In this document: positions 1 through 33,898 of the stretch, one piece after another | Numbering within the stretch: the first letter of the stretch is position 1 | Layout of the letters: each line of letters opens with the position of its first letter | From: Rufibacter ruber | GTDB lineage: Bacteria; Bacteroidota; Bacteroidia; Cytophagales; Hymenobacteraceae | Direction of reading: 5' to 3' | DNA length: 33,898 nucleotides | Assembly (NCBI RefSeq): GCF_001647275.1 | Contig: NZ_LRMM01000060.1 | Coordinates: forward strand, 1-33,898 | Notes under the pieces: model-generated | The model's input: only the letters and a program-made list of their open reading frames with translations | Database searches by the model: none | Told to the model about the DNA's origin: nothing | Position numbers and translations under genes: made by a program

Positions 1-31
1 GCCTGTTTTCTGGAAAACAGGCCAAAAACGG
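1..31. repeat. Palindromic repeat copy 1 (cut by the window edge)
   Basis: The core GCCTGTTTTCTGGAAAACAG and its completing bases form a hairpin. The right arm continues with CCAAAAACGG. The matching left arm lies outside the window. The copy ends about 26 nt downstream of the amidohydrolase stop codon (minus strand), the same 3'-of-gene position as most other copies. Confidence 0.75.
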
Positions 32-56
32 CACTTACGGTTTAGGATCAGTCAGT

Positions 57-1379
57 TCAAGGGTGCACGTACAATTTGCCACTTTTCATGACCAGCTTCA
101 CCTGTCTGAGGGCGCTAATGTGTTGGGTAGGGTCCCCCTGTACAGCCACCAGATCTGCCAGCAGACCCGCTTTGACGCTGCCAAGTTTGTTGTTCAGGTG
201 AAAGAGCCGCGCATTTCCGGAGGTGGCGGCGCGCAGCACCTCTACGGCCGGAACCCCGTAGTGCACCAGCAGTTCCAGTTCACGGGCATTGTCACCGTGG
301 GGGAACACGCCCACATCCCCGCCCACGCAGAGGGGGACTTTGGCCGCGAGGGCGGCTTTCAGGCTGCTCTTCTTTTGGGTGATACGGGCTGGTTCCGGAT
401 CAAAGCCTTTGCGCCAGCCATTGTACTGCAAGAGGGCATCACCGGCAGCCACGGTGGGGCAGAGGGCAATCCCTTTCTTCGCCATGAGTTGGAAGACCTC
501 AGGCGTACCGCCGTCACCATGCTCTATGGTTTCTACGCCGGCCTCTGCGGCACGGCGCATGCCTTCTGGAGTGCTGGCGTGGGCCACAACGGGTCTTCCG
601 CTGCTGCGGGCCACACTCACCACCAGTTTCAGTTCCTCCAGGGTGAACGTGGGCATTGCCTCGCCGTTTGGTCCCCACCTGTAGTCTGCGTAGACTTTGA
701 TGAGGTCTGCCCCTTTGCCTATCTGGTCGCGCACCACCCGCGTGAGGTGGTCAATCCCATCGGCGGCCTCAGCCCCCTGGGGTACTTCAAATGCCGGCGA
801 AAATCCTTTGGGCCCGTAGCTGCCGGTGGCAATGATGGCTTTACCGGCCACCAGCATTCTGGGCCCGGGAATGATGCCTTGGTCAATGGCCTGCTTCAGC
901 CCCACATCGGCGTAGCCGGCCCCCTCTGAGCCCAAATCCCTGACGGTGGTGAAGCCTGCAAGCAAGGTGTGCCGGGCATGGTTGGTGGCCCGGGCCACCC
1001 GTAGCGCCTCAGGTTCTTTCAGCACCTGATCGTTCCAGGAGGTTTCATTGTAGGGGTGCAGCAACAGGTGGGAGTGGCCCTCTATCAGACCCGGCAGCAG
1101 CGTTTGCCCCGGCAAGTCAAAGGTGATGGCACCGGTGGGGAGGGTTACAGAAGACACAGGTCCTGCCGCTGTTATACGTTCCCCCTGCACCACTACCACC
1201 CAGTCTTTATGTAATTCCCGCCCGTCAAAGACCAGGCTCGGTTTCAATACATACACAGAATCTGTTTTGGGGCTGTTTTGGGAAAAACAGCCCCAAAACG
1301 GAAAGAAAATAGCCAGCAGCAGGAGGGACAGTGTTTTGCGGAGCGGCATTTGGTTCAGACTCATAGCGTTAATAGACAT
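57..1379 (-). CDS. Exported metal-dependent amidohydrolase (M38 / imidazolonepropionase-like, possible Xaa-Pro dipeptidase)
   Basis: This is an amidohydrolase-superfamily enzyme of about 440 residues, probably acting outside the cytoplasm on peptides or cyclic amides. Visible family marks are the metal-binding H102-S-H104 after LPGLIEG, a candidate carboxylated lysine in DLIKVYAD, histidines in VVAHAS and ETIEHGD, an Asp in the GGDVG segment, and the C-terminal GSVKAGLLADLVAV strand typical of the family. The start at 1379 overlaps the last 11 bases of the upstream phzF-like gene, suggesting translational coupling. An ATG at 1364 or 1349 is also possible, and a longer reading to 1445 would run far into phzF. 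A hydrophobic N-terminus (LSLLLLAIFF) leads to FWGC31, a poor lipobox-like site. That segment is encoded by a palindromic repeat (1262-1301), so the mature N-terminus is uncertain. The substrate cannot be assigned from sequence. Confidence 0.85.
   Translation of the reverse strand: MSINAMSLNQMPLRKTLSLLLLAIFFPFWGCFSQNSPKTDSVYVLKPSLVFDGRELHKDWVVVVQGERITAAGPVSSVTLPTGAITFDLPGQTLLPGLIEGHSHLLLHPYNETSWNDQVLKEPEALRVARATNHARHTLLAGFTTVRDLGSEGAGYADVGLKQAIDQGIIPGPRMLVAGKAIIATGSYGPKGFSPAFEVPQGAEAADGIDHLTRVVRDQIGKGADLIKVYADYRWGPNGEAMPTFTLEELKLVVSVARSSGRPVVAHASTPEGMRRAAEAGVETIEHGDGGTPEVFQLMAKKGIALCPTVAAGDALLQYNGWRKGFDPEPARITQKKSSLKAALAAKVPLCVGGDVGVFPHGDNARELELLVHYGVPAVEVLRAATSGNARLFHLNNKLGSVKAGLLADLVAVQGDPTQHISALRQVKLVMKSGKLYVHP
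1262..1301. repeat. Palindromic repeat copy 2, inside the amidohydrolase signal-peptide region
   Basis: The arms CTGTTTTGGGGCTGTTTT and AAAACAGCCCCAAAACGG flank a short loop. This copy is read as protein: on the minus strand it encodes about 13 residues running FPFWGCFSQNSPK, just after the hydrophobic core of the signal sequence. It is the only copy clearly inside a real coding region. Confidence 0.85.
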
Positions 1380-2298
1380 ACCATTCCCCTTTTGAAATAA
1401 GTTGTACTTGCCCGCCCACGTTGATTTCATACTGATCTGGTGCACTGCGTTTCCTTTTCAGTTTGATGGAAGCATTCCGGTTCATCTCCACGCCCTGTTC
1501 CACCAGAAGCTCAAGCTCAGTTGCCGGGAAGAACTTGTGGTGGAGCAGGTAACTGAGCAGGCAGCCGTTGGCGCTCCCGGTGGCAGCGTCTTCTATGATC
1601 TGGTTGTTTTCATAGGCCAGCATGCGGGCGTTCAGTTGGGAGTGGGGACTGTAGGTTTCAGGGCAGAAGAAATAAAGCGCCACAGTGAGTCCGTCTGGCC
1701 GCTGGGTTTTATATAGGCCGTGCTTTTGAAGAAACCGTAAAAGAGGCTCTGGTTGTACAGAAAGCTGCCGCATGTGTTTCAGCCGTTGTACAGGGAGGAT
1801 CAGAAAAGGCAACCCCGTAGAAACCTCCTGAACGGGAAGGGTAGGGTGGAAGGCGTCTGTTGGCAGCCCAACCGCGGCGGCCAGCTCCTGTTTAGGAAAT
1901 ATGGGGCCGAAGGAAGGGTTGATTTGGCGCATGAACAGAAAATCTGGCCGCTGGCCCAGGTATTTGAACGAGACGGGTATTGGGCCCGCCTTGAGGTTTA
2001 AGGCCAGGGTAGGGGCGGCATTTCCCATAATAAACTGCTGAATGATGAAAGCGGTGCCCAACGTGGGGTGCCCGGCAAAAGGGACTTCGTATTCCACCGT
2101 AAAAAAGCGTACGTCAAACCCGCCTTGCTGTGGCTGGTCACTGCTGATGAAGGCAGATTCTGCAAAGCCAATCTCCCGGGCAATCTGCTACATTTGTTGG
2201 GTACTGAGGCCTTGGGCATTCCGGAAGACGGCTAACTGGTTTCCCCGGTATGGGGCATCAGCAAAGACATCTACTATGTAGAAAGGAAGTGAGTTCAT
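1369..2298 (-). pseudogene. PhzF-family isomerase gene interrupted by an in-frame TAG
   Basis: Reading from the ATG at 2298 gives a complete PhzF-like protein of about 309 codons (MNSLPFYIVDVFAD..., RGNQLAVF, GFAESAFI, then VEYEVPFAGHPTLG and later EDAATGSANGCLL). Codon 37 (2188-2190 on the plus strand) is TAG, where a neighbouring-type residue such as Gln would fit: one C-to-T change from CAG. The family's catalytic glutamate (E47 in ESAFI) lies after the stop. A product re-initiated at the GTG at 2097 would lack it. The rest of the frame is intact and carries the expected fold motifs, so inactivation is recent or the base is a sequencing error. The gene overlaps the downstream amidohydrolase by 11 bases, implying one transcript. 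PhzF-family proteins are mostly isomerases of unknown substrate. Confidence 0.75.
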
Positions 2299-2380
2299 GG
2301 CCTGAAGGTAAGAACTAACCCGTAGAGATGCGGCACCGGGGCCTATTCTCATTTGATAAAAAGCTTGGGTTTGCTACGGG

Positions 2381-2438
2381 CGCTGTTTCCTGTTTTAGGG
2401 GTGTTTTCTCAAAAACAGCCCTAAAACAGGAAACAGCG
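2381..2438. repeat. Palindromic repeat copy 3 (long form)
   Basis: The outer arms CGCTGTTTCCTGTTTTAGGG and CCTAAAACAGGAAACAGCG enclose the common TGTTTT-loop-AAAACA core. Outer pairing extends about 10 bp further than in most copies, giving a stem of about 25 bp with one mismatch near the core. Confidence 0.85.
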
Positions 2439-2546
2439 GTAGGTTTGTTATCCAGTTTATTTACCTGCCTTCAAGAGTGGATTTCTTTGGGAGGACAGGT
2501 AAAGGAACAACAGTGTGTTGAAGAAAAATATGTTTGTACCGCTCTT

Positions 2547-2589
2547 AAAAGAGGGAGAATACGAAAGTTGTAATTGTATATTCTCTTTT
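2547..2589 (-). terminator. Possible terminator of the DUF1206 gene
   Basis: AAAAGAG at 2547 pairs with CTCTTTT at 2583, with partly paired AT-rich inner arms. It lies 26 nt past the DUF1206 stop. The T-rich end is part of the stem and the inner pairing is imperfect, so support is modest. Confidence 0.35.
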
Positions 2590-2614
2590 GATTATGGAAA
2601 ATGAATAATGGGAT

Positions 2615-3415: not shown

Positions 3416-4955
3416 AGTGGTGACAAACTTTTTTTTGTTCGTACTCCCTAGACGATACGCAAAGGAATTATGTTGTCACGGGCCCCATAATCCTGTTCCA
3501 GATCATAAATCCGGCATGAGCAGGAGGTGTTAGAGCGCCTATTTTTATTGTGCCTGGGATGGTTGATTCATTATTGTGGAAGAAATGAAAGGAAATTTAT
3601 TTTAAATTAATTTATAGGGTAATTCACCTATTACTAAATGATCAAAATTTTAGCAACGGGGGCAGTTTGTGCTGGCAACCCCCACAAAGAGGGAAGAGGC
3701 ACCACGCAGGGGGGTAAAAAAGATAGTTAAAGTTGAGTTTGGGTATATTATTAGAATACCTTGATTAAAAATCATTTATATGATGGTATTTATGATTATG
3801 GTTTAATACCGCCAAGGCAATTTGTAGAACTTGCGCTATGTACTCTGAAGGATTGAAGCTTGACCTTGATTTGGGCTAAAACGCAGGATGCAGGGGAAGC
3901 AACGTTGGAGAAGTTGTAGTTGCATTAAAAGAGATACGAGAAGAATCTGGTAATGTTTTCAACCATTTTTCCGGAAATGATTTTATTGCAGCTGTGATGA
4001 ATTTCCGCGTCTCGCCATTAAACAAGGAAGCTGTTTGGAGCTTTTTCCTTTTTCTAACATGATGGATCGTGACTGACCTTGGCATGGTGAACGCGTACGC
4101 ATGTGTCTGCGTTTTGGAGCTGTTTTCCTAAAAACAGCCCGGAAACAGAAGCTTGCTTCTGCTGAAGGCACAAGCGGGCGTATGCGCCATATCCTGAATA
4201 AAAAACGCTAAACAGCTTCATGGCCTATCACTGTACTTTGCTTTATTTTCTAAAATAGAAACTGACAGCTATTTAGCAGTAATCATTAAGCAGTGTTGTT
4301 GAATAGATGTTAACTCTTATGCCAGGCGAGTAGCGGAGAGAAAGTCTGTATGGAGAGTGAGACTTACAAGGAAATAATTTATAATACCTGGTCCTTTTAT
4401 GGGAATATGTAGCTCAGGTTGTTGGGCTAATTTTACTGGTCTTGTTAAAGTAAGAGTAAGTATTACATCTAAATAAGAAAAGTATGAGCTAAACTGAGTT
4501 TATTTAAACTAACCAGTTAAGATAGTCAATGAGTGGAAATAGATTCTGTATGAAATATGACAGTATATGCGGCCTATAAACCGTTGCCTTATTCTTGTGG
4601 TAAAATCTGTTTGTTAGGTTAAAACAAAATATTATTTGTTTTGTTAAGTTGTTTTTTGCCTAGTTGATTATTTGTTTACCACTGTAATATTATATCAATT
4701 TTAATTTAAATAGTTGAATAGCTCATTCAGTAAATGTATTGAATTATCAACAATGGGTTGTTCTGTAGAAAAAGGAAATGCAATAAAGGTTAATTGTTGA
4801 TACTAAGTTTGTATTTAGATTTTATAACTGATGCTAATTTTTTTTATTATTATTGAACTGTTGAATTATTAGAACTATAGCACTTATTTGTTTCTATTTA
4901 AAGATAGTGACTTTAATCATGTTGACTATTACATCGTGTCAATATAAGCTACTTT
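3416..4955. other. 1.5-kb AT-rich region without a convincing gene
   Basis: Base composition drops sharply here, especially at 4200-4955, with many stop codons in all frames. The short open stretches (for example 3876-4085) have no start context, no family resemblance and cross the palindromic repeat. The only structured element I can define is repeat copy 4 (4106-4149). The region may hold regulatory DNA, an untranslated RNA or decayed genes, but none can be demonstrated by eye. Confidence 0.6.
4106..4149. repeat. Palindromic repeat copy 4 (imperfect)
   Basis: TCTGCGTTTTGGAGCTGTTTT pairs imperfectly with AAAACAGCCCGGAAACAGA. Both outer arms have drifted, but the core TGTTTT-loop-AAAACA is intact. 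It is followed at once by the small palindrome GAAGCTTGCTTC. It sits in the gene-free AT-rich region, about 800 nt from the nearest stop codon. Confidence 0.75.
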
Positions 4956-5569: not shown

Positions 5570-5652
5570 GCGCACGTGGTGAAACTGGTAGACACGCCAT
5601 CTTGAGGGGGTGGTGCCCTACGGGTGTGGGAGTTCGAATCTCCCCGCGCGCA
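5570..5652 (+). tRNA. tRNA-Leu (anticodon GAG)
   Basis: The 83-nt class-II tRNA folds as follows: acceptor GCGCACG with CGCGCGC; D-arm GTG...CAC with the AAACTGGTAGA loop; anticodon stem CCATC/GGTGG around loop TTGAGGG; a long variable arm TGCCCTACGGGTGT; T-arm GGGAG-TTCGAAT-CTCCC; discriminator A. The anticodon GAG reads CUC/CUU leucine codons. CCA is not encoded. Position 5 of the acceptor stem is A opposite C68, so one pair of the stem is mismatched. Confidence 0.93.
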
Positions 5653-5663
5653 CAAGCAAGTAA

Positions 5664-5697: not shown

Positions 5698-5819
5698 ATT
5701 TGCCCTAATAGGGCACTAGTTGGTGGGCACCTATGGCAATTCTTGAGGAGGGAGAGGTGGCTTCCATTTGAACCTGTCATCGGGTAGCTTGCTTCTCAAT
5801 TGCTAAATGAAAAGTCTGT

Positions 5820-5860
5820 TCTGTTTTTGCCTATTTTCTTAAAAACAGGCCAAAAACAGA
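5820..5860. repeat. Palindromic repeat copy 5
   Basis: TCTGTTTTTGCCTATTTT pairs with AAAACAGGCCAAAAACAGA. One arm carries CCTATTTT where others have CCTGTTTT, giving a mismatch in the inner stem. It lies between the tRNA and the response regulator at 6031. Confidence 0.8.
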
Positions 5861-6030
5861 AGCCCCTCTTAGCCGTGCTGATTCCTCTTGCTTGATCAGG
5901 TACGTATGAGGGAGCTGCTGATTTGTTTAGAATGGCAGGAGTGACAGGTTTTGAGGGGTGTGGCTCCCTTTTCCCAACCACAAACCGCTCTATCCGTATT
6001 TTCCTCAATACCATACCCCAAGTCTGCGCC

Positions 6031-7012: not shown

Positions 7013-7368
7013 GCGTAAAAGTACGGAGGTGGAGGGGATAAATACTTATAAATTCAGTTGTTATTATTAAAATTTATTAAGAACTTTTTTTCCAGCTCTA
7101 CTTTTGCTTCTGAATGGGTTAGGATTGGAAGGCAAGCACAGCAGGAGGCTTGGATAGCCTCTGCACGGAGGGGTAAAATCTGCTACCTGAATAAGCAGAC
7201 AAGCACACCTGTCAAGGTCCCATTGCCAATGGCCCTCCTTTTGATAACCCAAAGTAATAGGCGCTCCCATAAACAGAAGATCTGCTTCTCTTGTACGAAG
7301 GCAGAAGTCATAGAATTCCTGTTTCTGGGCTAGTTTCCGGAAAACAGGCCAAAAACAGAAAGGGCAGT
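7013..7368. other. Intergenic stretch upstream of the second receiver
   Basis: It holds repeat copy 6 (7316-7360), placed 8 nt past the NFACT stop. I see no gene, RNA or clear promoter in the rest. Confidence 0.5.
7316..7360. repeat. Palindromic repeat copy 6
   Basis: TTCCTGTTTCTGGGCTAGTTT pairs imperfectly with AAAACAGGCCAAAAACAGAA. Left and right arms look like two different sub-types (CTGGGC versus GGCCAA), so this copy has decayed or is a hybrid. It begins directly downstream of the NFACT stop codon on the minus strand. Confidence 0.8.
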
Positions 7369-8928
7369 TCAAGGAATTACCTTAAAAGGGTTTTGGGGCG
7401 TCACCAGGATCACTTTCTCCCGCTCTACTATGACTGAGCCCGGCGTGGCTCCCCTGGGCTTTCTAACATACTTCCTGGGGGTGTACAGAACAGGGCAGAG
7501 GGTGTCATTCTTCCGCTTTGAGTAGTAGGCGGCTACTTGGGCGGCAGTCTCTATCACCGGCATTGGGAAAGGCTGGCCGGCTTTGAGTTTAATCACCACA
7601 TGGGAGCCGGGAACGTCTTTGGCATGGAGCCATAAGTCATCTTTGTGCGTATGGTGCAGGGTAAGCTTGTCATTGGCCTTGGCATTCTTCCCTACTAGTA
7701 TTTTGAATCCGTTTGTCTCAAATGTATGGTAAGGCAGCTCCTGCCCGGCGGGGAGGGGGACCACCGTGTTTTTTTTCAGGTATTGCCGCAGTTGCGGGGC
7801 GGAGGTGATTTCTTCCAGTTCCTTTAGTTGCCGACCTAGGCGCTCTACCTCCTGTTCCTTTTTTTCTGCCCTTGCCTGAAGTAGAGTAAGTTCTATCTGC
7901 TGGTTTTTAGCCTTCTTGTACAACCGTTCTGCCGTCTTTTGCGGGGTTTCAGTGGCGTGAAGCTTTATCTTACGGGTGGTGTCCTGGTAAAAGTCATACA
8001 GCTCCACCTCTGCGCTACCCTTGGGGATGTTGGTAAGGTTGGCCATAATGACATCTGCGGTTTGGGCGTACGGGGTGCCGTGGTGCCACGTTTCCAGCTG
8101 TTCCTGTATCTGCCACCAGATTTTCTGTGCCACCTCCAGCTGGCGCTGTAAAGACTTGTGTGCCGCCCCGTAATGCCTGCTGAAATACTCTTGTGCCCTG
8201 TACTGGGGAACAAAAGCATTAAGGGCTTCTAAGGGGTCTGTATACTTTTGCTGAATCTGCCCTACGGGTAACAGGGAGAAGCGAAGAACCTTGTCCAGGT
8301 AAGTGAGGTAGTAGGAGGGGGTTTCCAGCTGTGCCAGCATTTCTTGTACCAATTGCCATTGGGCCAGTGGTTGTTTTGCTTCTATCCCCATTTCCTGGAG
8401 GTAGAGTAGCGGGAGATCTCCCAGTGTAGGCAGCATTTTACCGAGCAGTTGTGGTTGTGCCAGAAACTGTTCCTGGGTCAAGTGCCAGTTCTGGTGCATT
8501 GCCCTATAGTCTAATTCCAGATCCTTGGCAAATTTCCGGTGGAATAGCGCCATGGGCTGATCCTGCTCAAATAGTATCACATTAGACCTGTTCCCGAAGA
8601 GTTTAAAGAGCAATACTTTCCCTTGGGTGAACTGAATAAAGAAGCTTCTTTCCTGCCGGTGCGCCTGTACCTCCAGCACCTGCTTTCCCCAGACAGATGT
8701 AAACAGGTCTACCGAGTTTTGCCTTGCCCTGTTAAACGTAGCAGGAAACTGGAGGCTGGAAAATGTGGAGGTCTGGATTGCCTTGATGAAAAACTCCTGC
8801 GCCCCGTTATGAAATGCCAATACCAGTTCATCTTTTTCCTGACTGAACACTGAGTGCAGGGAGAATCCTTTTAGTGTTTGTTCAAGCTTTTGGGCAAGTT
8901 GCCGTAAGAAGTAATAATTCTGATGCAC
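7369..8928 (-). CDS. NFACT family protein (RqcH/Tae2-like, DUF814 C-terminus)
   Basis: This 519-residue protein has an NFACT-N-like first half, a charged coiled coil at about residues 330-390 (ERLYKKAKNQQIELTLLQAR...), and a C-terminal NFACT-R/DUF814 domain. The latter is marked by ETNGFKILVGKNAKANDKL, DLWLHAKDVPGSHVVIK and AAYYSKRKNDTLCPVLYTPR. In other bacteria RqcH binds obstructed 50S subunits carrying peptidyl-tRNA and adds alanine tails. Whether this short Bacteroidota form does the same is an inference. The start is GTG at 8928, three bases after the stop of the MBL-hydrolase gene, so the two are almost certainly cotranscribed. A repeat palindrome follows 8 nt downstream of the stop and probably marks the end of the operon. 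Confidence 0.85.
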   Translation of the reverse strand: MHQNYYFLRQLAQKLEQTLKGFSLHSVFSQEKDELVLAFHNGAQEFFIKAIQTSTFSSLQFPATFNRARQNSVDLFTSVWGKQVLEVQAHRQERSFFIQFTQGKVLLFKLFGNRSNVILFEQDQPMALFHRKFAKDLELDYRAMHQNWHLTQEQFLAQPQLLGKMLPTLGDLPLLYLQEMGIEAKQPLAQWQLVQEMLAQLETPSYYLTYLDKVLRFSLLPVGQIQQKYTDPLEALNAFVPQYRAQEYFSRHYGAAHKSLQRQLEVAQKIWWQIQEQLETWHHGTPYAQTADVIMANLTNIPKGSAEVELYDFYQDTTRKIKLHATETPQKTAERLYKKAKNQQIELTLLQARAEKKEQEVERLGRQLKELEEITSAPQLRQYLKKNTVVPLPAGQELPYHTFETNGFKILVGKNAKANDKLTLHHTHKDDLWLHAKDVPGSHVVIKLKAGQPFPMPVIETAAQVAAYYSKRKNDTLCPVLYTPRKYVRKPRGATPGSVIVEREKVILVTPQNPFKVIP

Positions 8929-16888: not shown

Positions 16889-17820
16889 TGGCGTCTCGGT
16901 TTTTAGTGGTAGTAGTGGGCCCCACCGCGGTGGGGAAAACTGATTTCTGTGTGCAGCTGGCCAAAGAGTATCAGACCCAGATCCTGTCTATGGATTCACG
17001 GCAGTTCTTTAGGGAGTTGAGCATTGGTACGGCCAAACCCTCAAAAGAGGAACAGGGCGGAGTGCCCCACCATTTCATTGACAGCCATTCCATTCAGGAG
17101 GAGTATAACGCCGGAGCCTTCGCCCTAGATGCGCGCCTGCTTCTCCAGCGCCTTTTCCGGCAACACCCGGTTGTCATTGCCACGGGCGGTTCCGGCCTGT
17201 ACGTGCGGGCCCTGTGCGAGGGGCTGGACGAGATGCCGGACATTTTGCCCGGCATAAGGGAAAGCTTAACCCAACGGTTGGAACAGGACGGTTTGCCAGC
17301 CTTGGTAGCGCAGCTCAGGGAATTGGATCCTGTGTATGCCCGGCAAGTAGATGTACAGAACCCGCAGCGGGTGATTAGGGGGCTGGAAGTGTGCCTGAGC
17401 AGCGGGCAACCCTATTCTTCGTTCAGGAAAAAAGCCTTGGCAACTGCAAGGGATTTCCAGATCATCAAGATTGGCCTCACCCGTGACCGCGAAGAGCTGT
17501 ACCGCCGCATTGACCACCGCATGGACCTTATGCTGGCGCAGGGGCTGCTGGACGAGGTAAAGAGCGTACTGCCTTTCAGGAATCACCAGGCGCTCCAGAC
17601 GGTTGGGTACACCGAGCTCTTTCATTACCTGGACGGCGACTACGACTTTGCTGAGGCGGTTAGGTTGCTCAAGCGGAACAGCCGCCGTTACGCTAAACGC
17701 CAGATTACCTGGTTTAACCGGGACCCCGAAATCCAATGGTTCCACCCAGACCAGCTGGCCGACGTGCTGGCGTGGGTGCAACAGAAAATAGAGGGAGAGG
17801 CAGGAAGATCCATTTCATAA
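16885..17820 (+). CDS. miaA: tRNA dimethylallyltransferase
   Basis: MiaA adds a dimethylallyl group to A37 of tRNAs that read UNN codons. The 311-residue length is normal. Landmarks are the P-loop GPTAVGKT at residues 12-19, SMDSRQFFRELSIGTAKPS, VPHHFIDS, ATGGSGLYVRALCEGLDE, RVIRGLEV and the C-terminal NSRRYAKRQITWFNRD. The start is the first ATG of ATGATG at 16885, overlapping the glycosyltransferase stop. The protein could equally start at the second ATG. Translation is probably coupled to the upstream gene. A palindromic repeat begins 2 nt after the stop codon. Confidence 0.96.
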   Translation: MMASRFLVVVVGPTAVGKTDFCVQLAKEYQTQILSMDSRQFFRELSIGTAKPSKEEQGGVPHHFIDSHSIQEEYNAGAFALDARLLLQRLFRQHPVVIATGGSGLYVRALCEGLDEMPDILPGIRESLTQRLEQDGLPALVAQLRELDPVYARQVDVQNPQRVIRGLEVCLSSGQPYSSFRKKALATARDFQIIKIGLTRDREELYRRIDHRMDLMLAQGLLDEVKSVLPFRNHQALQTVGYTELFHYLDGDYDFAEAVRLLKRNSRRYAKRQITWFNRDPEIQWFHPDQLADVLAWVQQKIEGEAGRSIS

Positions 17821-17822
17821 TT

Positions 17823-17863
17823 CCTGTTTCCGGGCTGTTTTTCTGAAAATAGCCCGGAAACAG
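17823..17863. repeat. Palindromic repeat copy 7
   Basis: CCTGTTTCCGGGCTGTTTT pairs with AAAATAGCCCGGAAACAG around loop TCTG. The CCGGGC/GCCCGG arm differs from the GGGGC/GCCCC and AGGCC/GGCCT arms of other copies but keeps pairing. It starts 2 nt after the miaA stop. Confidence 0.85.
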
Positions 17864-17985
17864 ACTTTTCTGTCTGTAGGAATAAGGGCTGTTCAATTAC
17901 GCAGCGCATTACTTTCTAACAGGTGGAACCTGCTTTCTTACCTACCTGCTATAGTTCCAGGGCTCTGCACGGGCAGGACCTCCCT

Positions 17986-18022
17986 CTGTTTTTGGCCTGT
18001 TTTCTTGAAAACAGAAAAACAG
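17986..18022. repeat. Palindromic repeat copy 8 (deleted arm)
   Basis: The left half CTGTTTTTGGCCTGTTTT is complete. The right half reads AAAACAGAAAAACAG, with the GCC of the expected AAAACAGGCCAAAAACAG missing. The outer stem is therefore broken, consistent with a decayed copy. Confidence 0.75.
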
Positions 18023-18227
18023 GACAGATGCTTCAAGCATTCTATTGAGGGGTAGCTTCTGGCTTCTTGTCAGCGAATCCCATAGGTAAACCACCTGCCT
18101 CCGTTCCTTAAACCGCAGTTTTTGCTTAACCACTCCTTCGCCGGGCGTTGGCTTTGGGGCGCTTTTCTACAAAATCAAAGGGGTAAGACTCTTTAGAAGG
18201 AAGGAACTCCTGCCTTAGTATAAGTGT

Positions 18228-18277
18228 CTGCTTTGCGTTTTCGGGCTGTTTTCAGAAAAACAGCGAACGCAAAGCAG
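18228..18277. repeat. Palindromic repeat copy 9 (divergent outer arms)
   Basis: The outer arms CTGCTTTGCGTT and AACGCAAAGCAG are perfectly complementary but share little sequence with other copies. The core GGCTGTTTTCAGAAAAACAGC is the family core. It keeps the fold with a new outer sequence. Confidence 0.8.
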
Positions 18278-18429
18278 CTGAACAACTCAACGAGAGGGCA
18301 TGTCTGACGGGATGATCCTTTTTTCAGACCGTTGGTACTTTGTTCCCATGGGCGGGAAACAATTGACACAGTGCGGGAGCCGCCGCAAGAGCAGGAGGGG
18401 ACCAACGCTGGTTGCCAGGCTCAAAAGTA

Positions 18430-18475
18430 TTCCTGTTTTGGGGCTGTTTTTCTGAAAACAGCTCCAAAACAGGAA
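18430..18475. repeat. Palindromic repeat copy 10
   Basis: TTCCTGTTTTGGGGCTGTTTT pairs with AAAACAGCTCCAAAACAGGAA, with one G-T type wobble position in the inner arm and loop TCTG. It lies 32 nt past the pfkA stop on the minus strand. Confidence 0.85.
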
Positions 18476-18506
18476 TGATAACGGCAAGCCTACCTTGAAA
18501 TGCTGA

Positions 18507-20853: not shown

Positions 20854-20912
20854 CTTTCTCTCCTTTGGTTTCCTTTTTGTACGGTGACACCTGGCCGCAG
20901 TTTTGGCGGTTG

Positions 20913-20949
20913 CTGTTTTAGGCCTGTTTTTAGCAAAACAGGCCTAAAC
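20913..20949. repeat. Palindromic repeat copy 11, running into the SLC13 stop codon
   Basis: CTGTTTTAGGCCTGTTTT pairs with AAAACAGGCCTAAAC. The right arm ends early where AAACAG of other copies becomes AAACTAG. The last base of this arm is the first base of the SLC13 stop codon (20949-20951), so gene end and repeat are fused. Confidence 0.8.
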
Positions 20950-22718
20950 TAGTTATTCATAGTCAGTGGCCAGAAGACCGGCACCAGGAACAGAATCAGG
21001 ATGATCAGGAGAAGGGTGAGCCCAGACCCTATTTTGAGGAAGTCGCGGAACGAATATTTACCCGGGCCATACACCAGAATACATGACGGTTCAAAAGGTG
21101 TGATCAGCGACACAGACGCAGAGAGCATGATGGCAATGGCAAAGGTACGGGGGTTGGCGTCTATCTGGGCGGCGGTTTGCAAGGCCACCGGCAACACCAC
21201 CAGCGCGGCCGCCGCATTTGACATGGGTTGGGTCAGAAAGACGGTAAGCAAAATAAAACCAGCCAGAATGGTGAGCACCCCAAACGGTTCCAGCAGTTGC
21301 ACAATCCAGTGGGCCAGAAACTTGTCTGCCCCGGAGTTGGCCATGGCCATCCCAAAGGCCGTCATCCCCCCAATCAGAATAAGCAGGCGCCAGTCAATTA
21401 CCTGATACGCCCGGTCTGTTGAGATGCACTTGAAGAGAATGCTCATCACTGCGGCTCCCAGAAAGGAGGTAGACAGCGGCAGAACACCGGTACTCCCAAT
21501 GATGATGGCTAAGATGAAGAAAGCCAGGGTCAGGATCCCTTTCCGTTCTTTGAACAGCACCGGCTTAAACTCATCCAGCACGGCCAGGTGCTGGTTCATT
21601 TTTAAATACTCCAGGCGTTCAGCAGAGCCTTGCACCAGAAGCAGATCCCCTAACTGCAGCTGTACATCCCCAATTTTGGTCCTGATGGTTTCGCCCTGCC
21701 GGGAGACCGCCAGCACCACCAGCCCAAACCGGCGCAGGAACTCAATTTCCCTGATGCTTCGCTTGAGCAGGTCAGACTTTCCCGTAATCAGGATTTCCGC
21801 CAGCCTGATGTCACCCCCCACCAGGTCGTCTTCCACAATGACATCGGCCAGAATCTGGATGCCTTTGGTTTCTTTTACTTTGATAAGGTCATCCATTTCC
21901 CCTTCTACCAGCAGTACATCATTGGCTCTGATGCGGGTGCGGTAGTCGGGCAGAAAGTTCTCTTTGCTCCTGATGATGTTCAGGATTCTGAACCCCATTT
22001 TTGAAAGGTCAGACGCAAAGGCAATCTGGCCAATGAGCGGTGATTCATCCTGTACCAGAATCTCAGTCAGGTAGGTTTTGATATTATAGCGGGTAGTGAG
22101 GCCCTGGGTGGTGCCGGCCGGAAGCATTTTATTCCCAATGGTCATCATATACACAATGCCCACGGCGAAAACAATTATTCCTATCCCAGAAAATTCAAAG
22201 AAACCAAACGGCTCAAACCCCGCTTTGGCCATGTAGCCGCTTACCGCCACATTGGTAGAGGTGCCAATGAGGGTACAGGTGCCGCCCAGAATAGATGCGT
22301 ACGCCAGGGGCATGAGGTATTTTGAACTGCTGGTCTGCATCTTTTTGGCTACCCCTACAATGGGGGTGACAAAAAGGGCGGTAACGGTGGTGTTGTTCAT
22401 GAAAGCCGAAATCAACCCCGGGACAATCATTATGAAAAGCAGAAGCATGGTTGGCCGGTGACCAGTGTGGCGCATGAGCCAGTTCACCAGAAAGTCAAGC
22501 ACACCAGTGTCCTCCAGGGCCGCGCTCAGTACAAAAATTGAAGCCAGAATGACAATAAAATCACTGCTGAAACCTGCATACGCTTCTTCTGGGGTGATGA
22601 TCTTGGTGCAGGTGAGTACAATGAGCAGGATCAGGGTAATTACATCAACAGAGAGTTTCTCAGACGCAAAAAGGCCGATAGCAACCAACAGCAGAACTAA
22701 GACAAGGGCAATCTCCAT
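20949..22718 (-). CDS. SLC13/DASS-type permease with two RCK_C (TrkA-C) domains
   Basis: The 589-residue membrane transporter has hydrophobic N- and C-terminal halves that flank a soluble pair of TrkA-C domains at about residues 213-285 and 300-375. The latter are visible as two copies of a pattern ending in DVLLVEGEMDDL and DLLLVQGSAERL. Conserved transporter signatures are SAFMNNTTVTALF (about 105-117) and GTCTLIGTSTNVAVSG (about 146-161) in the first half, and LTQPMSNAAAALVV in the second. These are sodium-coupled anion-site hairpins of the family. Members carry dicarboxylates, sulfate or related anions; the substrate cannot be told here. Start ATG is at 22718. The stop overlaps repeat copy 11. 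Confidence 0.9.
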   Translation of the reverse strand: MEIALVLVLLLVAIGLFASEKLSVDVITLILLIVLTCTKIITPEEAYAGFSSDFIVILASIFVLSAALEDTGVLDFLVNWLMRHTGHRPTMLLLFIMIVPGLISAFMNNTTVTALFVTPIVGVAKKMQTSSSKYLMPLAYASILGGTCTLIGTSTNVAVSGYMAKAGFEPFGFFEFSGIGIIVFAVGIVYMMTIGNKMLPAGTTQGLTTRYNIKTYLTEILVQDESPLIGQIAFASDLSKMGFRILNIIRSKENFLPDYRTRIRANDVLLVEGEMDDLIKVKETKGIQILADVIVEDDLVGGDIRLAEILITGKSDLLKRSIREIEFLRRFGLVVLAVSRQGETIRTKIGDVQLQLGDLLLVQGSAERLEYLKMNQHLAVLDEFKPVLFKERKGILTLAFFILAIIIGSTGVLPLSTSFLGAAVMSILFKCISTDRAYQVIDWRLLILIGGMTAFGMAMANSGADKFLAHWIVQLLEPFGVLTILAGFILLTVFLTQPMSNAAAALVVLPVALQTAAQIDANPRTFAIAIMLSASVSLITPFEPSCILVYGPGKYSFRDFLKIGSGLTLLLIILILFLVPVFWPLTMNN

Positions 22719-22888
22719 AGTGGTGGCGCGAAGGTTATGTACAGGTGCTTAGGGGGTACGCAGAAATAACGGATTGAAGGGGCCAGGTGCTTTTTCAATT
22801 CGTGTCTTGTACTCTAGGTACGCCCAAAAGGTTGACCTGTTCAGTGTCTAGTTTCTAACTAATTGGCTGTCATGGCCTATAAAGCCCC

Positions 22889-24082
22889 CTATGGGTGCAC
22901 CTGCTCATGAATAGCTGCCAATACCAGGTCACAGGCCTCCTCAATTTCTGCCATAGTAATGGTAAGCGGTGGGGCTATTCTCATGGAGTTGTCACAGAAC
23001 AGAAACCAGTCAGTCAGGACTCCTTTTAATAGGGCACTGTCAATCACTGACTTTAAAGTAGCAAAAGAATCAAACTCTACCGCCATCATCAGCCCCAGGT
23101 GTCTGAATTCTTTGATGGCGGGGTGGGTTAACCGCTGTTGGAAGCGTGCAGCCTTTTCTGCCACCTGCGCCAGCAGCCCTTCTTCCTGAATGATCTGCAA
23201 GGTGGCCAGGGAGGCGGCGCAGGAAACCGGGTGTCCGCCAAAAGTGGTGATGTGCCCCAGCATTGGGTCATTCTTGAGCGAGTGCATAATCTCCCGGCGG
23301 GAAATGAACGCCCCTATGGGCATGCCGCCGCCCATGCCTTTGGCACAGGTGAGAATATCTGGAATAACCCCAAACTGCTCAAACGCCCAGAAGGTGCCGG
23401 TTCGGCCAAAGCCGCTCTGGATTTCGTCTAGAATTAGCAAGGTACCGGTCTCTGAGCATCTCTGCCTCAGGTTTTGCAGATACGCCCGCGAGGGAACCCG
23501 TACCCCGGCTTCGCCCTGAACCGTTTCCAGAATAACAGCCGCCGTGCGGGTGGTAATCAGTTCTAAGTCAGGCGCATGGTTGTGTCTGATGTGCCGAACG
23601 TCTGGCAGCAGGGGCCTGAACGCCCGTTTGAAACTCTCTGACCCGTTGAGTGAAAGCGAGCCCTGGGTAGAGCCATGGTAGGCGTTCTCAAAAGCGATGA
23701 GTTCAGTACGGCCGGTAAAACGTTTGGCCAGTTTACAGGCACCCTCTACGGCCTCACTCCCCGAGGACACAAAATACACATTGTCTAACCCGGCGGGCAG
23801 GGTCAGCGCCAGCGCGTGGGCCAGCTGGGCGGGAGGCGCCTGTACAATCTCCCCATAGACCATGAGGTGCAGGTACTTGTCCAGCTGTTGTTGTATGGCC
23901 TGGATGACCTTGGGGTGCCGGTGCCCCACATTGCTCACGCCAATCCCCGAGATCAGGTCAAGGTACCGTTCCCCGTTGGGGCCGTACATATACACCCCTT
24001 CGGCTTTCTCTACCTCCAGCAAAAGCGGGAAATCAGTGGTTTGGGCCTGGTGTTGTAAGAAGAGCTGGCGCGGAGAAAGCAT
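22889..24082 (-). CDS. Class-III aminotransferase (acetylornithine/4-aminobutyrate type)
   Basis: This PLP-dependent transaminase of 397 residues has YLDLISGIGVSNVGHRHP near the N-terminus, SSGSEAVEGACKLAKRFTGR (PLP phosphate binding), ENAYHGST, ILETVQGEAGV, ILDEIQSGFGRTG with D219-E220, and the Schiff-base lysine K248 in TCAKGMGGGMPIGA. The family covers acetylornithine, ornithine, 4-aminobutyrate and diaminopimelate-type aminotransferases. No adjacent arginine, lysine or GABA gene helps to choose, so I leave the substrate open. It starts at the ATG at 24082 and appears monocistronic, with 170 nt before the SLC13 start. Confidence 0.92.
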   Translation of the reverse strand: MLSPRQLFLQHQAQTTDFPLLLEVEKAEGVYMYGPNGERYLDLISGIGVSNVGHRHPKVIQAIQQQLDKYLHLMVYGEIVQAPPAQLAHALALTLPAGLDNVYFVSSGSEAVEGACKLAKRFTGRTELIAFENAYHGSTQGSLSLNGSESFKRAFRPLLPDVRHIRHNHAPDLELITTRTAAVILETVQGEAGVRVPSRAYLQNLRQRCSETGTLLILDEIQSGFGRTGTFWAFEQFGVIPDILTCAKGMGGGMPIGAFISRREIMHSLKNDPMLGHITTFGGHPVSCAASLATLQIIQEEGLLAQVAEKAARFQQRLTHPAIKEFRHLGLMMAVEFDSFATLKSVIDSALLKGVLTDWFLFCDNSMRIAPPLTITMAEIEEACDLVLAAIHEQVHP

Positions 24083-24186: not shown

Positions 24187-24230
24187 ACCTGTTTTAGGCC
24201 TGTTTTTCTGAAAACAGGCCTAAAACAGGT
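24187..24230. repeat. Palindromic repeat copy 12 (perfect)
   Basis: ACCTGTTTTAGGCCTGTTTT and AAAACAGGCCTAAAACAGGT are exact reverse complements around loop TCTG: a 20-bp stem, the cleanest copy in the window. Confidence 0.9.
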
Positions 24231-24363: not shown

Positions 24364-24403
24364 AAAGCAGAAAAGGGAGGCCACGGCCTCCCTTTTCTGC
24401 TTT
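24364..24403 (-). terminator. Terminator of the sigma/Spy-like operon
   Basis: AAAGCAGAAAAGGGAGGCC and GGCCTCCCTTTTCTGCTTT are perfect 19-bp complementary arms with only two bases between them. It begins 14 nt after the stop of the Spy-like gene. Read on the minus strand the distal arm ends in TTT, and the A/T-rich base can serve both strands. Confidence 0.8.
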
Positions 24404-25958: not shown

Positions 25959-26013
25959 CCCTTTTTCTGTTTCAGGCCTGTTTTTTTAAAAACAGGCTGA
26001 AACAGAAAAAGGG
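25959..26013. repeat. Palindromic repeat copy 13 (long, near-perfect)
   Basis: CCCTTTTTCTGTTTCAGGCC at one end mirrors GGCTGAAACAGAAAAAGGG at the other, with core CTGTTTTTTTAAAAACAG. A separate perfect small hairpin, CAGGGGTGACCCCTG, lies just beside it at 25941-25955. Confidence 0.85.
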
Positions 26014-29407: not shown

Positions 29408-29455
29408 TCTATTGGTTTGAAGATTAGACTGGTTTACAAATGGAGGAGTGTGTTT

Positions 29456-29495
29456 CTGTTTTGGGGCTGTTTTGGAGAAAACAGCCCCAAAACAG
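29456..29495. repeat. Palindromic repeat copy 14
   Basis: CTGTTTTGGGGCTGTTTT pairs with AAAACAGCCCCAAAACAG around loop GGAG. It lies 37 nt downstream of the peroxiredoxin stop (minus strand). This is the same GGGGC/GCCCC sub-type as copies 2, 10 and 15. Confidence 0.88.
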
Positions 29496-29531
29496 GAATG
29501 GCTGCCTTCTCACGGGAGCGGCAGCCATAGG

Positions 29532-29978: not shown

Positions 29979-29983
29979 GGTTT

Positions 29984-30020: not shown

Positions 30021-30032
30021 AAGGTGAGATTT

Positions 30033-30072
30033 CTGTTTTGGGGCTGTTTTTCTGAAAACAGCCCCAAAACAG
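30033..30072. repeat. Palindromic repeat copy 15 (perfect arms)
   Basis: CTGTTTTGGGGCTGTTTT and AAAACAGCCCCAAAACAG are exact complements around loop TCTG. It lies 54 nt past the M23 peptidase stop and is flanked by longer degenerate inverted arms. Confidence 0.9.
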
Positions 30073-30083
30073 GAAACCGGGAA

Positions 30084-30125
30084 GTTATTCGTGTCACGAA
30101 CAACTAAGAACTAACAACGAACAAC
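30084..30125 (-). repeat. Degenerate outer arm right of repeat copy 15
   Basis: Contains CAACTAAGAACTAACAACGA, and its reverse complement resembles the arm at 29984-30020. It also holds an internal palindrome TTCGTGTCACGAA. It ends one base before the M23 stop codon (30126-30128). Confidence 0.5.
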
Positions 30126-32042: not shown

Positions 32043-32640
32043 AATTCAATAAGGTTTTGTCTTCTATAAACGCCTCCAGCCGGTCTCCTATTTTAATGGG
32101 GCCCACCCCCGCCGGGGTTCCCGTAAAGATGAGGTCGCCTTTCTTGAGGGTGATGAACCGGGACATATACGCTAAAATTGCCCCAAAGTCATGGAGGAGC
32201 ATCCCTGAATTTCCTTTTTGCTTCAGTTCTCCGTTCAGGTTTAGCCCAAAAGTGATGTTGTCCCACTGGGGGAAGTCTTCAATGGGCAGAAAGTCTGAGA
32301 CCGGGGCAGACCCGTTAAACCCTTTGGCCAGGGTCCAGGGCAGGCCCTTGGTTTTGGCCTTGGTCTGCAGGTCACGGGCGGTGAAGTCAATGCCTATGCC
32401 CAGGCCGTCAATGTAGTTGCCGGCAAACTTGGGCTGGATGTTCTTGCCTTCCTTGCCAATGCGCAGCACCAGCTCCACCTCATAGTGAATGTCTGTGCTG
32501 TAGTCTGGGTAGTAAAACGGCTCGTTGTGGCGCAGTACGGCCGTGTCTGGCTTGAAGAAAATCACCGGTTCCTCGGGTACTTCGTTTTTTAGTTCGGCAA
32601 TATGTTCAGCGTAGTTTCTTCCTATGGCAAGTATTTTCAT
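32029..32640 (-). CDS. Fumarylacetoacetate hydrolase (FAH) family protein
   Basis: This 203-residue FAH-fold enzyme is the compact type (2-hydroxyhepta-2,4-diene-1,7-dioate isomerase, oxaloacetate decarboxylase and acylpyruvase relatives). Metal-binding residues are E54 and E56 in HYEVELVLRIG and D85 in GIGIDFTARDLQ. Further motifs are KGFNGSAPVSDF and FITLKKGDLIFTGTPAGVGPIK. The start at 32640 (MKILAIGRNYAEH) is the family N-terminus; an open extension upstream is not supported. It overlaps the M23 gene start by 14 bases. Such small FAH proteins are often acylpyruvases or oxaloacetate tautomerases, but the substrate is not determined here. Confidence 0.9.
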   Translation of the reverse strand: MKILAIGRNYAEHIAELKNEVPEEPVIFFKPDTAVLRHNEPFYYPDYSTDIHYEVELVLRIGKEGKNIQPKFAGNYIDGLGIGIDFTARDLQTKAKTKGLPWTLAKGFNGSAPVSDFLPIEDFPQWDNITFGLNLNGELKQKGNSGMLLHDFGAILAYMSRFITLKKGDLIFTGTPAGVGPIKIGDRLEAFIEDKTLLNFEVK

Positions 32641-32888
32641 AGCGGTGGTTTTGTTTCCAAAGATACGGCATTTAGGTATGTGCGCTACCTGCCCCAAGGG
32701 CGCCCTTCTCAGAAAAAATGGTTTAGGTGTGGAATTCTATATAGTAAAAAATAAATTTGTGGCCCAGTTGCGGACATAGGCCAACACTTTGGCACATTCT
32801 CTGCGTATATGAGGTGAATTTGCAAAGGCAGGGGTGGTGACGTAAGGTGTGCCAGCCGGAAAAATGTACCATTAAACAATCTAAAACG

Positions 32889-33692
32889 ATGAATATGTTT
32901 AAAAATGCGTTCTTAACGCTTACTCTTTTGGTGATGCTGGGCTGCTCAACCGTTCCCATTACCGGGCGGCGTCAGGTTTCCCTGGTGAGTGACCAGGAAG
33001 TGATCACCATGTCCTTTCAGGCGTACAATGATCTCTTGAAACAGAGCAGACTGTCTAACAATGCCTCTCAAACGGCAATGGTAAAACGGGTGGGGCAGAA
33101 AATACAGCGGGCGGTAGAGCAGTTCATGCAGCAGCAGGGCGCCTCTTCCCAGCTGGAGGGGTACCAATGGGAGTTCAACCTGATTGAAGACGCCCAGCAG
33201 CAGAACGCATTTGCCATGGCGGGCGGTAAAACGGCCGTATATACCGGCTTGCTCCCTATCACCAAAGATGAAAGCGGGTTAGCCGTTGTCATGGGCCATG
33301 AAATTGCCCATGCCATTGCCAAGCACTCAAACGAGCGCATCAGCCAGCAGTTGCTGGCCGAGTACGGCGGGGCTACCCTGGGAGCGGTGCTGGGCCAGAA
33401 CCCGGGCGCCTCCTCTGAAATTGTGAACGCCGCCTACGGGATTGGTGCCCAAGGGGTACTCCTGAAATGGGGCCGCACCCAGGAATCTGAGGCCGACCGT
33501 TTAGGTTTGATCTTCATGGCCATGGCCGGTTACAACCCGCAAACCGCCGTAACCTTCTGGCAACGCATGGCCGCCGCCAGCGGAGGGGCTTCCCAACCAG
33601 AGCTGTTGAGCACCCACCCCAGCAACGAGACCCGGATTGCAGATATTCAGAAACACCTGCCTGAGGCGCAGAAATACTACACCGGCCGTTAA
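32889..33692 (+). CDS. M48 family metallopeptidase lipoprotein
   Basis: The 267-residue exported zinc peptidase has a short signal sequence ending in the lipobox VMLGC with lipid anchor C19. Zinc motif HEIAH (H137, E138, H141) lies in VMGHEIAHAIAKHSNER. The third ligand region RTQESEADRLGL is at about 196-207. A C-terminal LSTHPSNETRI completes the Oma1/BepA-like layout. These proteases act on misfolded envelope proteins. The start at 32889 keeps the full signal peptide. TAAATTTG at 32752-32759 fits a Bacteroidota -7 box, but I see no good -33 element. It is divergent from the FAH gene and alone on its strand. Confidence 0.92.
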   Translation: MNMFKNAFLTLTLLVMLGCSTVPITGRRQVSLVSDQEVITMSFQAYNDLLKQSRLSNNASQTAMVKRVGQKIQRAVEQFMQQQGASSQLEGYQWEFNLIEDAQQQNAFAMAGGKTAVYTGLLPITKDESGLAVVMGHEIAHAIAKHSNERISQQLLAEYGGATLGAVLGQNPGASSEIVNAAYGIGAQGVLLKWGRTQESEADRLGLIFMAMAGYNPQTAVTFWQRMAAASGGASQPELLSTHPSNETRIADIQKHLPEAQKYYTGR

Positions 33693-33695
33693 TCT

Positions 33696-33773
33696 ATGAA
33701 AGCCAAAACCAGATGGTTGCTCTTTAGCGCGGTGCTCATGGCGTTGCTGCTTAAATCTGATAAAGCGAGGTAG
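33696..33773 (+). CDS. Possible 25-residue hydrophobic peptide or truncated membrane-protein remnant
   Basis: An ATG three bases after the M48 stop opens a 25-codon frame: basic start MKAKTRW, a hydrophobic run LLFSAVLMALLL, then KSDKAR and TAG. It looks like the first helix of a longer protein cut short just before a repeat-rich stretch, or a small membrane peptide coupled to the M48 gene. There is no family match. Confidence 0.3.
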   Translation: MKAKTRWLLFSAVLMALLLKSDKAR

Positions 33774-33775
33774 TG

Positions 33776-33820
33776 GCACGTATCACATATCTCGTAGTAA
33801 GTATCACGTAGCACGTAGCA
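33776..33820. repeat. Degenerate tandem repeat of CACGTA-type units
   Basis: Units such as GCACGTATCAC, CTCGTAGTA, TATCACGTAGCACGTAGCA follow each other with small changes. There are about six short units (CGTA/CGTAGCA). It follows directly after the 25-codon frame at 33696. Confidence 0.6.
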
Positions 33821-33865
33821 ATATTTTTTTAGGCGCTCCTTTGCAGATTTGTCGAAGGAGGCGCT

Positions 33866-33898
33866 GCCGTTCGCTGTTTGCAAACAGCCGAAACCGGC
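33866..33898. repeat. Palindrome related to the repeat family (edge copy)
   Basis: The central CTGTTTGCAAACAG is flanked by GCCGTTCG and CCGAAACCGGC, giving near-complementary arms. The core resembles TGTTTT-loop-AAAACA but is shorter. It may continue past the window end. Confidence 0.55.

What the first reader, a model, noticed from the sequence alone, without database searches (positions are those of the whole stretch)
1..33898. Dispersed family of covarying palindromic repeats (about 15 copies in 34 kb)
Seen: copies at 1, 1262, 2381, 4106, 5820, 7316, 17823, 17986, 18228, 18430, 20913, 24187, 25959, 29456 and 30033. All have the core TGTTTT-loop-AAAACA and outer arms of several sub-types (GGGGC/GCCCC, AGGCC/GGCCT, CCGGGC/GCCCGG, CAGGCC/GGCTG). 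The arms change sequence yet mostly keep pairing, which points to selection on the hairpin. At least seven copies lie within 60 nt of a stop codon; most of the rest lie in spacers between genes and one (copy 2) lies inside a coding region. Inferred: a REP-like or MITE-like family used as hairpin terminators or mRNA 3' stabilisers. There is no T-tract after the stems, so canonical termination is not assured. No transposase is nearby to mobilise them.
Basis: partly seen in the sequence, partly recalled or inferred. Interest (0 to 1): 0.8.

Follow-up and report, generated by a model that had tools for sequence, protein, structure and literature searches.

The report
Species-specific DNA palindromes at gene ends
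A bacterial genus carries roughly two thousand short DNA palindromes per genome, mostly fixed just after genes across its species, whose two arms change together and whose wording differs between several lineages, as if read by a protein nobody has identified yet.

Summary
All 15 copies are present, and the family fills the genome: 172 copies in 349 kb sampled, 0 in shuffled DNA, about 2,700 genome-wide by extrapolation. All 16 genus genomes sampled have it at 3.3-6.0 per 10 kb; only 6 of 104 other family genomes have hits, 1-5 each. Density peaks 20-60 nt from stop codons, about tenfold that near starts. Copies are inherited at fixed places: 38 of 40 and 20 of 20 alignable copies are shared between close pairs. 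At orthologous loci the arms covary strongly. Several lineages have their own core dialect at the same loci.

There is no U-tract excess. Mismatches show no RNA polarity (G·U 267: A·C 245), whereas terminators of the same loci do (98:33). RAYT genes of the genus (18 tested) are not preferentially flanked by copies, and a one-contig genome without RAYT keeps the family.

Best reading: an untagged REP-like palindrome kept at DNA level at transcription-unit ends, probably read by an unidentified lineage-specific factor. Function is inferred.

The parts
1..38 (.). palindrome copy 1, cut by the window edge, at the 3' end of the amidohydrolase gene
   Evidence: (E 5e-7, cut off at the window end)
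1255..1308 (.). copy 2, inside the amidohydrolase reading frame 57-1445(-), over a lipobox-like FWGC
2381..2438 (.). copy 3
4102..4155 (.). copy 4
   Evidence: E 1e-9; not in the model
5814..5866 (.). copy 5, downstream of tRNA-Leu 5570-5653
7312..7365 (.). copy 6, next to the stop of the NFACT-family gene 7369-8928(-)
17817..17870 (.). copy 7, just after the stop of the IPP-transferase (miaA-like) gene
17979..18029 (.). copy 8, right arm shortened
   Evidence: E 4e-6
18228..18277 (.). copy 9, arms of unequal length
   Evidence: E 7e-5
18429..18476 (.). copy 10, at the 3' end of the phosphofructokinase gene; a hairpin of the family was found at this gene end in all 16 species
20906..20959 (.). 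copy 11, at the stop of the transporter gene 20949-22718(-)
24187..24230 (.). copy 12, perfect 20-bp stem
25959..26013 (.). copy 13, downstream of the transketolase C-half gene; a copy in 14 of 14 other species with this gap
29453..29498 (.). copy 14, downstream of the peroxiredoxin gene
30030..30075 (.). copy 15, downstream of the M23 peptidase gene

Best explanation
The copies are one family of about 42-50 bp palindromes ancestral to the genus: two inverted arms, each holding two GTTT(T) boxes 11 bp apart, a G+C-rich spacer between them and a variable 4-nt centre. They sit mainly at the ends of transcription units, at places inherited by descent. Shown: copy number, position bias, sharing of positions between species, cross-species covariation, strand symmetry, dialects in several lineages. 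Inferred: they act as DNA (a hairpin or cruciform exposed when transcription or replication unwinds it), as boundary or topology elements behind genes. They are probably read by a trans-acting factor whose preferred core drifted by lineage, so that copies in a genome follow its dialect. In part of the genus this maintenance is weak or lost and copies decay in place.
For: Gene-end bias: 7.10 per kb at 20-60 nt from a stop versus 0.68 per kb at the same distance from a start; convergent gaps 31 of 35 occupied, tandem 73 of 136, divergent 18 of 41. Vertical: syntenic gaps with a copy in this genome have one in 56 of 58 cases in other species, gaps without in 21 of 52 (p 3e-11, species not independent); close pairs share 38 of 40, 39 of 40 and 20 of 20 alignable copies. 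Pairing selected: at the pfk end 18 of 22 pairs have two-sided changes, 51 cells versus 13.3±2.8 shuffled; at the transketolase end 12 of 22, 32 cells versus 10.3±3.0; pairing above the within-species null with z over 2 at positions 9-15 and 17-26, up to 9.3. Not RNA-polar: G·U 267, A·C 245 (276 well-paired copies of 490 tandem) versus 98:33 for 186 U-tract terminators, p 3e-6; no column within the stem or loop differs from its mirror at p<0.05. Dialects: leave-one-out assignment 419 of 898 overall among 15 species (chance 7%), up to 87%; CTCATTT in 7 of 10 G012 arms and 0 of 134 arms of other species at the same gaps.
Against: No reader protein is identified, so the trans-acting factor is conjecture. 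Copies at gene ends are better paired than divergent ones (14.5-14.7 versus 12.8 of 19, p 3e-5 in the tight species), which an RNA role at 3' ends would also predict. Near stops G·U:A·C is 177:153 (p 0.2), a lean towards RNA that is not excluded. Most copies are imperfect, and between close pairs one-sided changes outnumber two-sided ones (186 to 54 and 306 to 26). Eight of the 15 species tested show weak or no dialect. In G012 and G004 near-identical arms also share loops more often (identical in 21% and 15% of pairs against 1-3% for dissimilar arms), which recent copying would explain too. Between the close pairs 15 of 55, 19 of 59 and 19 of 39 copies could not be aligned, so gain and loss may be underestimated.
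Confidence: 0.42

Rival explanations
1. RNA-level 3'-end hairpins: terminators or blocks to 3' exonucleases that stabilise the upstream mRNA, as proposed for REPs.
For: Position after stops and avoidance of starts; strong cross-species covariation; better pairing at gene ends than in divergent gaps; in some species and loci the stem is followed by a T-run or extended by A-tract/T-tract arms (sequences, read by eye).
Against: No T-run excess at the 3' side of the stem: 10 of 116 versus 14 of 116 on the 5' side here, 30 of 233 versus 26 of 233 elsewhere. G·U:A·C near 1:1, unlike terminators at 3:1. Presence independent of true terminators: a copy at 77 of 135 gene ends with one and at 442 of 791 without. 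Loop columns show no preference for the transcribed strand.
Confidence: 0.27
2. REP/REPIN elements spread and kept by RAYT transposases encoded in the genome.
For: RAYT genes in 15 of 16 genomes, above the NCBIfam REP_Tyr_transpos cut-off for 3 of 3 tested; high copy, intergenic, palindromic; in G012 and G004 near-identical arms go with alike loops.
Against: No GTAG/CGTC-type tag or any conserved base outside the palindrome. Strand-symmetric, whereas TnpA-REP recognition is strand-specific (PMC8266576, passages). RAYT genes not enriched for flanking copies: both sides within 200 nt 3 of 18 versus 28 of 242 other genes. G006, one contig, has no RAYT match yet keeps a tight family. In this genome copies with near-identical arms match at 0.34 of loop positions versus 0.34-0.37 for other pairs, identical loops 5.8% versus 3.0-5.1%.
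Confidence: 0.1
3. Functionless palindromes whose arms are kept alike by template switching during replication, tolerated only between genes.
For: Strand symmetry; runs of adjacent two-sided changes in G006/G013, 4 of length 3 or more against 0.25 expected.
Against: In G003/G014 all 26 two-sided changes are isolated single pairs, as in stepwise compensation; inverted loops only 3 of 25 and 1 of 36; does not explain tenfold density after stops, shared core sequence or dialects.
Confidence: 0.14
4. A DNA-uptake-type signal with dialects (DUS/USS-like drive) that here occurs only as inverted pairs.
For: Thousands of copies, lineage dialects and intergenic stem-loops, as described for Neisseriaceae DUS (PMC3630211, passages).
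Against: Half-sites are almost never solitary: 567 of 579 strong arms belong to full palindromes in the 60 loci scanned, whereas DUS/USS occur as single copies too, often inside genes (partly recalled); outer arms without consensus still pair.
Confidence: 0.05

Closest known systems
REP / BIME elements and REPINs with RAYT (TnpA-REP) transposases
   Same: Short intergenic palindromes, hundreds to thousands per genome, near gene 3' ends, sometimes compensatory arm changes; RAYT genes in the same genomes
   Different: No GTAG/GTGG or CGTC tag, no orientation, no BIME arrays (spacings near exponential), not enriched beside RAYT genes, orthologous positions shared between species, lineage dialects, in this genome loop sequence hardly inherited with the arms
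Untagged REP-like palindromic repeats (mentioned for M. tuberculosis, D. radiodurans, Bordetella, Brucella and cyanobacteria in PMC3733652)
   Same: Palindromic, dispersed, no terminal tag
   Different: Those families were not compared here; my searches listed no described family in this genus, and dialects at conserved positions were not mentioned in the passages read
DNA uptake sequence dialects of Neisseriaceae
   Same: Thousands of copies, one variant per lineage, some as inverted pairs forming stem-loops
   Different: Here solitary halves are nearly absent, the unit is the palindrome, and arbitrary outer pairs covary
Intrinsic (U-tract) terminators
   Same: Hairpins shortly after stop codons; some copies abut one directly
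   Different: Opposite T/A polarity inside the stem, no U-tract excess, no G·U excess; separate true terminators coexist in the same genomes

Membership tests
REP/REPIN (RAYT-associated) | More than 100 intergenic palindromic copies per genome | tested here: met
REP/REPIN (RAYT-associated) | Conserved tetranucleotide tag (GTAG/GTGG or CGTC) at one end | tested here: not met
   Information drops to about 0 beyond position 24 from the centre (symmetrised flanks)
REP/REPIN (RAYT-associated) | RAYT gene flanked by two inverted copies | tested here: not met
   Both sides within 200 nt: 3 of 18 RAYT genes versus 28 of 242 other genes, p 0.46
REP/REPIN (RAYT-associated) | RAYT encoded in the same genome | tested here: inconclusive
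   15 of 16 genomes; G006 has no match but keeps the family
REP/REPIN (RAYT-associated) | Cleavage or binding by RAYT | not testable with these tools
   needs biochemistry
MITE | Occupied and empty sites, target duplication, recent copies alike throughout | tested here: inconclusive
   Alignable copies shared between species, 38 of 40 and 20 of 20, but 15 of 55 and 19 of 39 not alignable; loops hardly go with arms in G000 and G005 but do in G012 and G004. Target duplications were not tested
Intrinsic terminator | U-tract after the stem | tested here: not met
   10 of 116 (3' side) versus 14 of 116 (5' side) here; 30 of 233 versus 26 of 233 in other species
Intrinsic terminator | RNA-type pairing (G·U favoured over A·C on the transcribed strand) | tested here: not met
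   267:245 against 98:33 in terminators
DNA uptake sequence | Occurs also as single oriented copies, many inside genes | tested here: not met
   Solitary strong half-sites 12 of 579; 4 of 172 copies in predicted coding sequence in this genome
DNA uptake sequence | Lineage dialects | tested here: met
   (7 of 15 species tested clearly, 8 weakly or not)
BIME | Clusters of alternating copies | tested here: not met
   Neighbour distances near exponential: 18 of 126 below 300 nt, 18.8 expected
Rfam RNA families | Match above gathering score | tested here: not met
   0 matches in the window; the tRNA-Leu was not listed either, so this is a weak test

The most novel reading that the evidence does not exclude
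Probability: 0.3. Interest if true: 0.85.

Novelty: new variant of a known kind. Interest (0 to 1): 0.66.

Why it matters
What REP-like palindromes do, and whether they are selfish, has long been open. Here a family behaves neither clearly like a spreading repeat nor like an RNA hairpin: it stays at the same gene ends across a genus, keeps its pairing, and changes its wording genome-wide in several lineages. The mismatch-polarity test (G·U versus A·C against terminators of the same genomes) is a simple way to ask of other repeat families whether they work as RNA or as DNA.

Tried and rejected
Terminators: rejected as the general role, though single loci may be co-opted (sequences). RAYT partnership: a first look suggested flanking copies; with control genes it vanished. 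Mobility through loop identity: little sign in G000 or G005; in G012 and G004 loops go with arms, which their dialect or copying could explain. Uptake-signal reading: rejected on solitary half-sites. Loop inversion as a mark of template switching: 3 of 25 and 1 of 36, not clearly above what shared loop preferences would give (judged against the loop frequencies, no formal test). In one search orthologous copies were paired by nearest position within 400 nt, so a few pairs may be wrong. Phage carriage: the exact full pattern gave 0 matches in viral contigs. Rfam: no match. Plasmid search with a RAYT gave only distant homologues, under 60% identity, in 7 records. The G·U/A·C control could have been an artefact of the T-tract; restricting it to inner pairs kept it (85:28). 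In one search the printed heading says of 21 pairs; the script counts 19, and at least 17 of 19 for the next column. The covariance-model counts over genomes are capped at about 150 scored candidates or 48, so copy numbers come from the sampled stretches, which include loci chosen around RAYT genes. A2 was selected for pairing, so its pair count is circular and not used. Three of the 16 pfk-end sequences (G003, G008, G014) were left out of A5, and G000 out of A4, because of length offsets; for G004 the transketolase gap was not found in the fetched stretch. G008 (6 copies) was left out of the dialect test.
Full report
What is there. The window is contig 124 of a 5.5 Mb draft genome. The best named relatives of a window protein are in Adhaeribacter, Pontibacter and Hymenobacter; records very near the window's own genome may be left out of that list. 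The genus itself is not named by the tools; I suspect Rufibacter (my recollection of its size and relatives; one search shows only that it belongs to Hymenobacteraceae). Two arms of about 21 nt, each with two GTTT(T) boxes 11 bp apart, flank a 4-nt centre. Nothing is conserved beyond about position 24 from the centre.

More than chance. A position matrix finds 172 copies in 348,902 bases and none in three Markov shuffles. In 870,644 bases of 15 relatives it finds 360 against 1 in simulated sequence. Density is 3.3-6.0 per 10 kb in each of the 16 genomes (17-349 kb sampled per genome). With the covariance model all 16 genus genomes match, 31-48 of at most 48 scored candidates, while only 6 of 104 other family genomes have any hit, 1-5 each (E up to 0.001, stricter filters). 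In loci from eight named members of sister genera none of the 22 strong hairpins found resembles the family by eye; most look like classical terminators.

Where they sit. In this genome 4 of 172 are in predicted genes and 1 at an edge; convergent gaps of at least 60 nt hold one in 31 of 35, tandem 73 of 136, divergent 18 of 41. Over all species sampled the density is 7.10 per kb at 20-60 nt from a stop (nearest gene end) and 0.68 per kb at that distance from a start; 85 of 904 matches fall in predicted genes, with lower scores. Short convergent gaps (60-150 nt) usually hold exactly one, 66 of 89; of 81 long ones 14 have one near each stop and 25 near neither.

Inheritance. Gene order around the window is largely kept in the genus. 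Where this genome has a copy, other species have one in the same gap in 56 of 58 cases; where it has none, in 21 of 52 (the gap 20949-22889 alone accounts for 14 of these 21, a probable loss here). Between G003 and G014 (85.5% identical) 38 of 40 alignable copies are shared (39 of 40 the other way), and between G006 and G013 20 of 20; 15 of 55, 19 of 59 and 19 of 39 copies lay outside alignments. A few of the shared matches look coding.

Covariation. Within this genome the arm-swap test gives a modest excess. Pooled over 795 intergenic copies with arms permuted within species, pairing exceeds the null with z over 2 at positions 9-15 and 17-26, up to 9.3, and not beyond. At single orthologous loci it is strong: 18 of 22 pairs with two-sided change among 13 species at the pfk end and 12 of 22 among 14 species at the transketolase end, with 0 of 500 shuffles reaching the observed covariation scores. 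These shuffles ignore relatedness; the slid-partner control, which keeps it, gives 0.06-0.15 against 0.56 and 0.09-0.13 against 0.40. Between close pairs two-sided changes that keep pairing in the inner stem exceed chance (10 against about 1.8 in G003/G014, 13 against about 0.9 in G006/G013), but one-sided changes are commoner: 306 to 26 and 186 to 54 over the longer stem. So copies break and are re-paired or decay; pairing is not strictly kept everywhere.

RNA or DNA. If the transcript's hairpin were selected, G·U mismatches on the transcribed strand should be tolerated more than A·C. In 186 U-tract terminators from the same loci they are 98:33, and 85:28 in inner stems. In the palindromes they are 267:245, different from terminators at p 3e-6. 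Near stops alone it is 177:153, p 0.2, so a weak RNA contribution is not excluded. No column of stem or loop differs from its mirror relative to transcription in 490 tandem copies; only the two outermost flank columns do, at p 0.02 and 0.04. T-runs are no commoner on the 3' side, and presence is independent of true terminators. A minority abuts a terminator directly: a strong hairpin within 58 nt upstream in 10 of 140 here and 25 of 290 elsewhere (downstream 8 and 15).

Dialects. In 15 species each copy was scored against species matrices, leaving itself out: 419 of 898 go to their own species (chance 7%). G004 45 of 52, G012 63 of 75, G000 121 of 180, G005 73 of 129 and G007 25 of 56 go home; of G006 33 of 39 and of G013 48 of 52 go to one of these two; the other eight species are at 5-23%. 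At the syntenic gaps CTCATTT occurs in 7 of 10 G012 arms and 0 of 134 arms of other species; GTTTA in 8 of 10 G004 arms and 9 of 134. The seven tight species carry 21.7-28.6 bits and 13.3-15.6 of 19 pairs; the other nine 14.9-20.4 bits and 11.2-12.4 (small samples inflate bits). In this genome copies with arms within two differences match at 0.34 of loop positions, as other pairs do (0.34-0.37), with a slight excess of identical loops (5.8% against 3.0-5.1%); G005 is alike, but in G012 and G004 loops go with arms. The first argues against recent copying and for site-by-site change towards a common wording, the main reason to propose a reader; the second leaves copying open in those two lineages.

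RAYT. REP-associated tyrosine transposases match in 15 of 16 genomes (3 of 3 tested pass NCBIfam). Eighteen of them, from ten genomes, are not flanked by copies more than other genes are. G006, one contig, has no match but keeps a tight family. Published REPs are tagged, and strand-specifically recognised by their transposases (PMC3733652, PMC2817692, PMC8266576; passages read). The paper on tagged repeats notes untagged families in a few other bacteria and calls for study. Dialects are described for Neisseria uptake sequences, with inverted pairs at terminators (PMC3630211, passages). PMC8049555 and PMC13155455 were seen as passages, PMC3116915 only in listings.

Not in print? Searches listed no paper on palindromes in this genus; the genus guess limits that claim, and only listings were seen.

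How it may work. Position at gene ends, DNA-level pairing and lineage dialects fit an element that is unwound or extruded behind or ahead of RNA polymerase and read as a hairpin, for instance to bound supercoiling (gyrase binding at BIMEs is recalled, not tested). Convergent ends, where positive supercoils meet, are the most occupied.

On re-reading I mended the range of paired positions, the loop statement, the MITE row, the RAYT wording and the number of dialect species, and confirmed the G005 in-frame copy.

Noticed in passing
window 1255-1308: A copy lies in frame within the amidohydrolase ORF, encoding the FWGC lipobox-like end of the signal peptide; the G005 orthologue has a scoring copy at the corresponding place, L127 15574-15627.
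   Followed up: partly
window 1369-2097: PhzF-family ORF matches its profile only from position 69 on, so the 5' part seems missing or broken.
   Followed up: no
window 24364-24403: A classical perfect 19-bp hairpin with A-rich 5' and T-rich 3' arms, terminator-like and distinct from the family.
   Followed up: partly
G000:C100, C97, C112, C102: Three full-length RAYT genes plus RAYT fragments on C102.
   Followed up: partly
G001, G002, G003, G008, G011, G014, G015: Lineages in which copies keep their places but have lower information and pairing, as if maintenance had been lost (G008 only 6 copies).
   Followed up: partly
L014, L019, L020, L136, L137 and others: Terminator hairpins whose T-run merges directly into the left arm of a palindrome.
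   Followed up: partly
G110 (another genus of the family): Two model hits, the best at E 1.4e-10, outside the genus; could be the family's origin or a transfer.
   Followed up: no
window 5570-5653: tRNA-Leu (gag) found by ARAGORN but not listed by the Rfam scan at gathering threshold.
   Followed up: no
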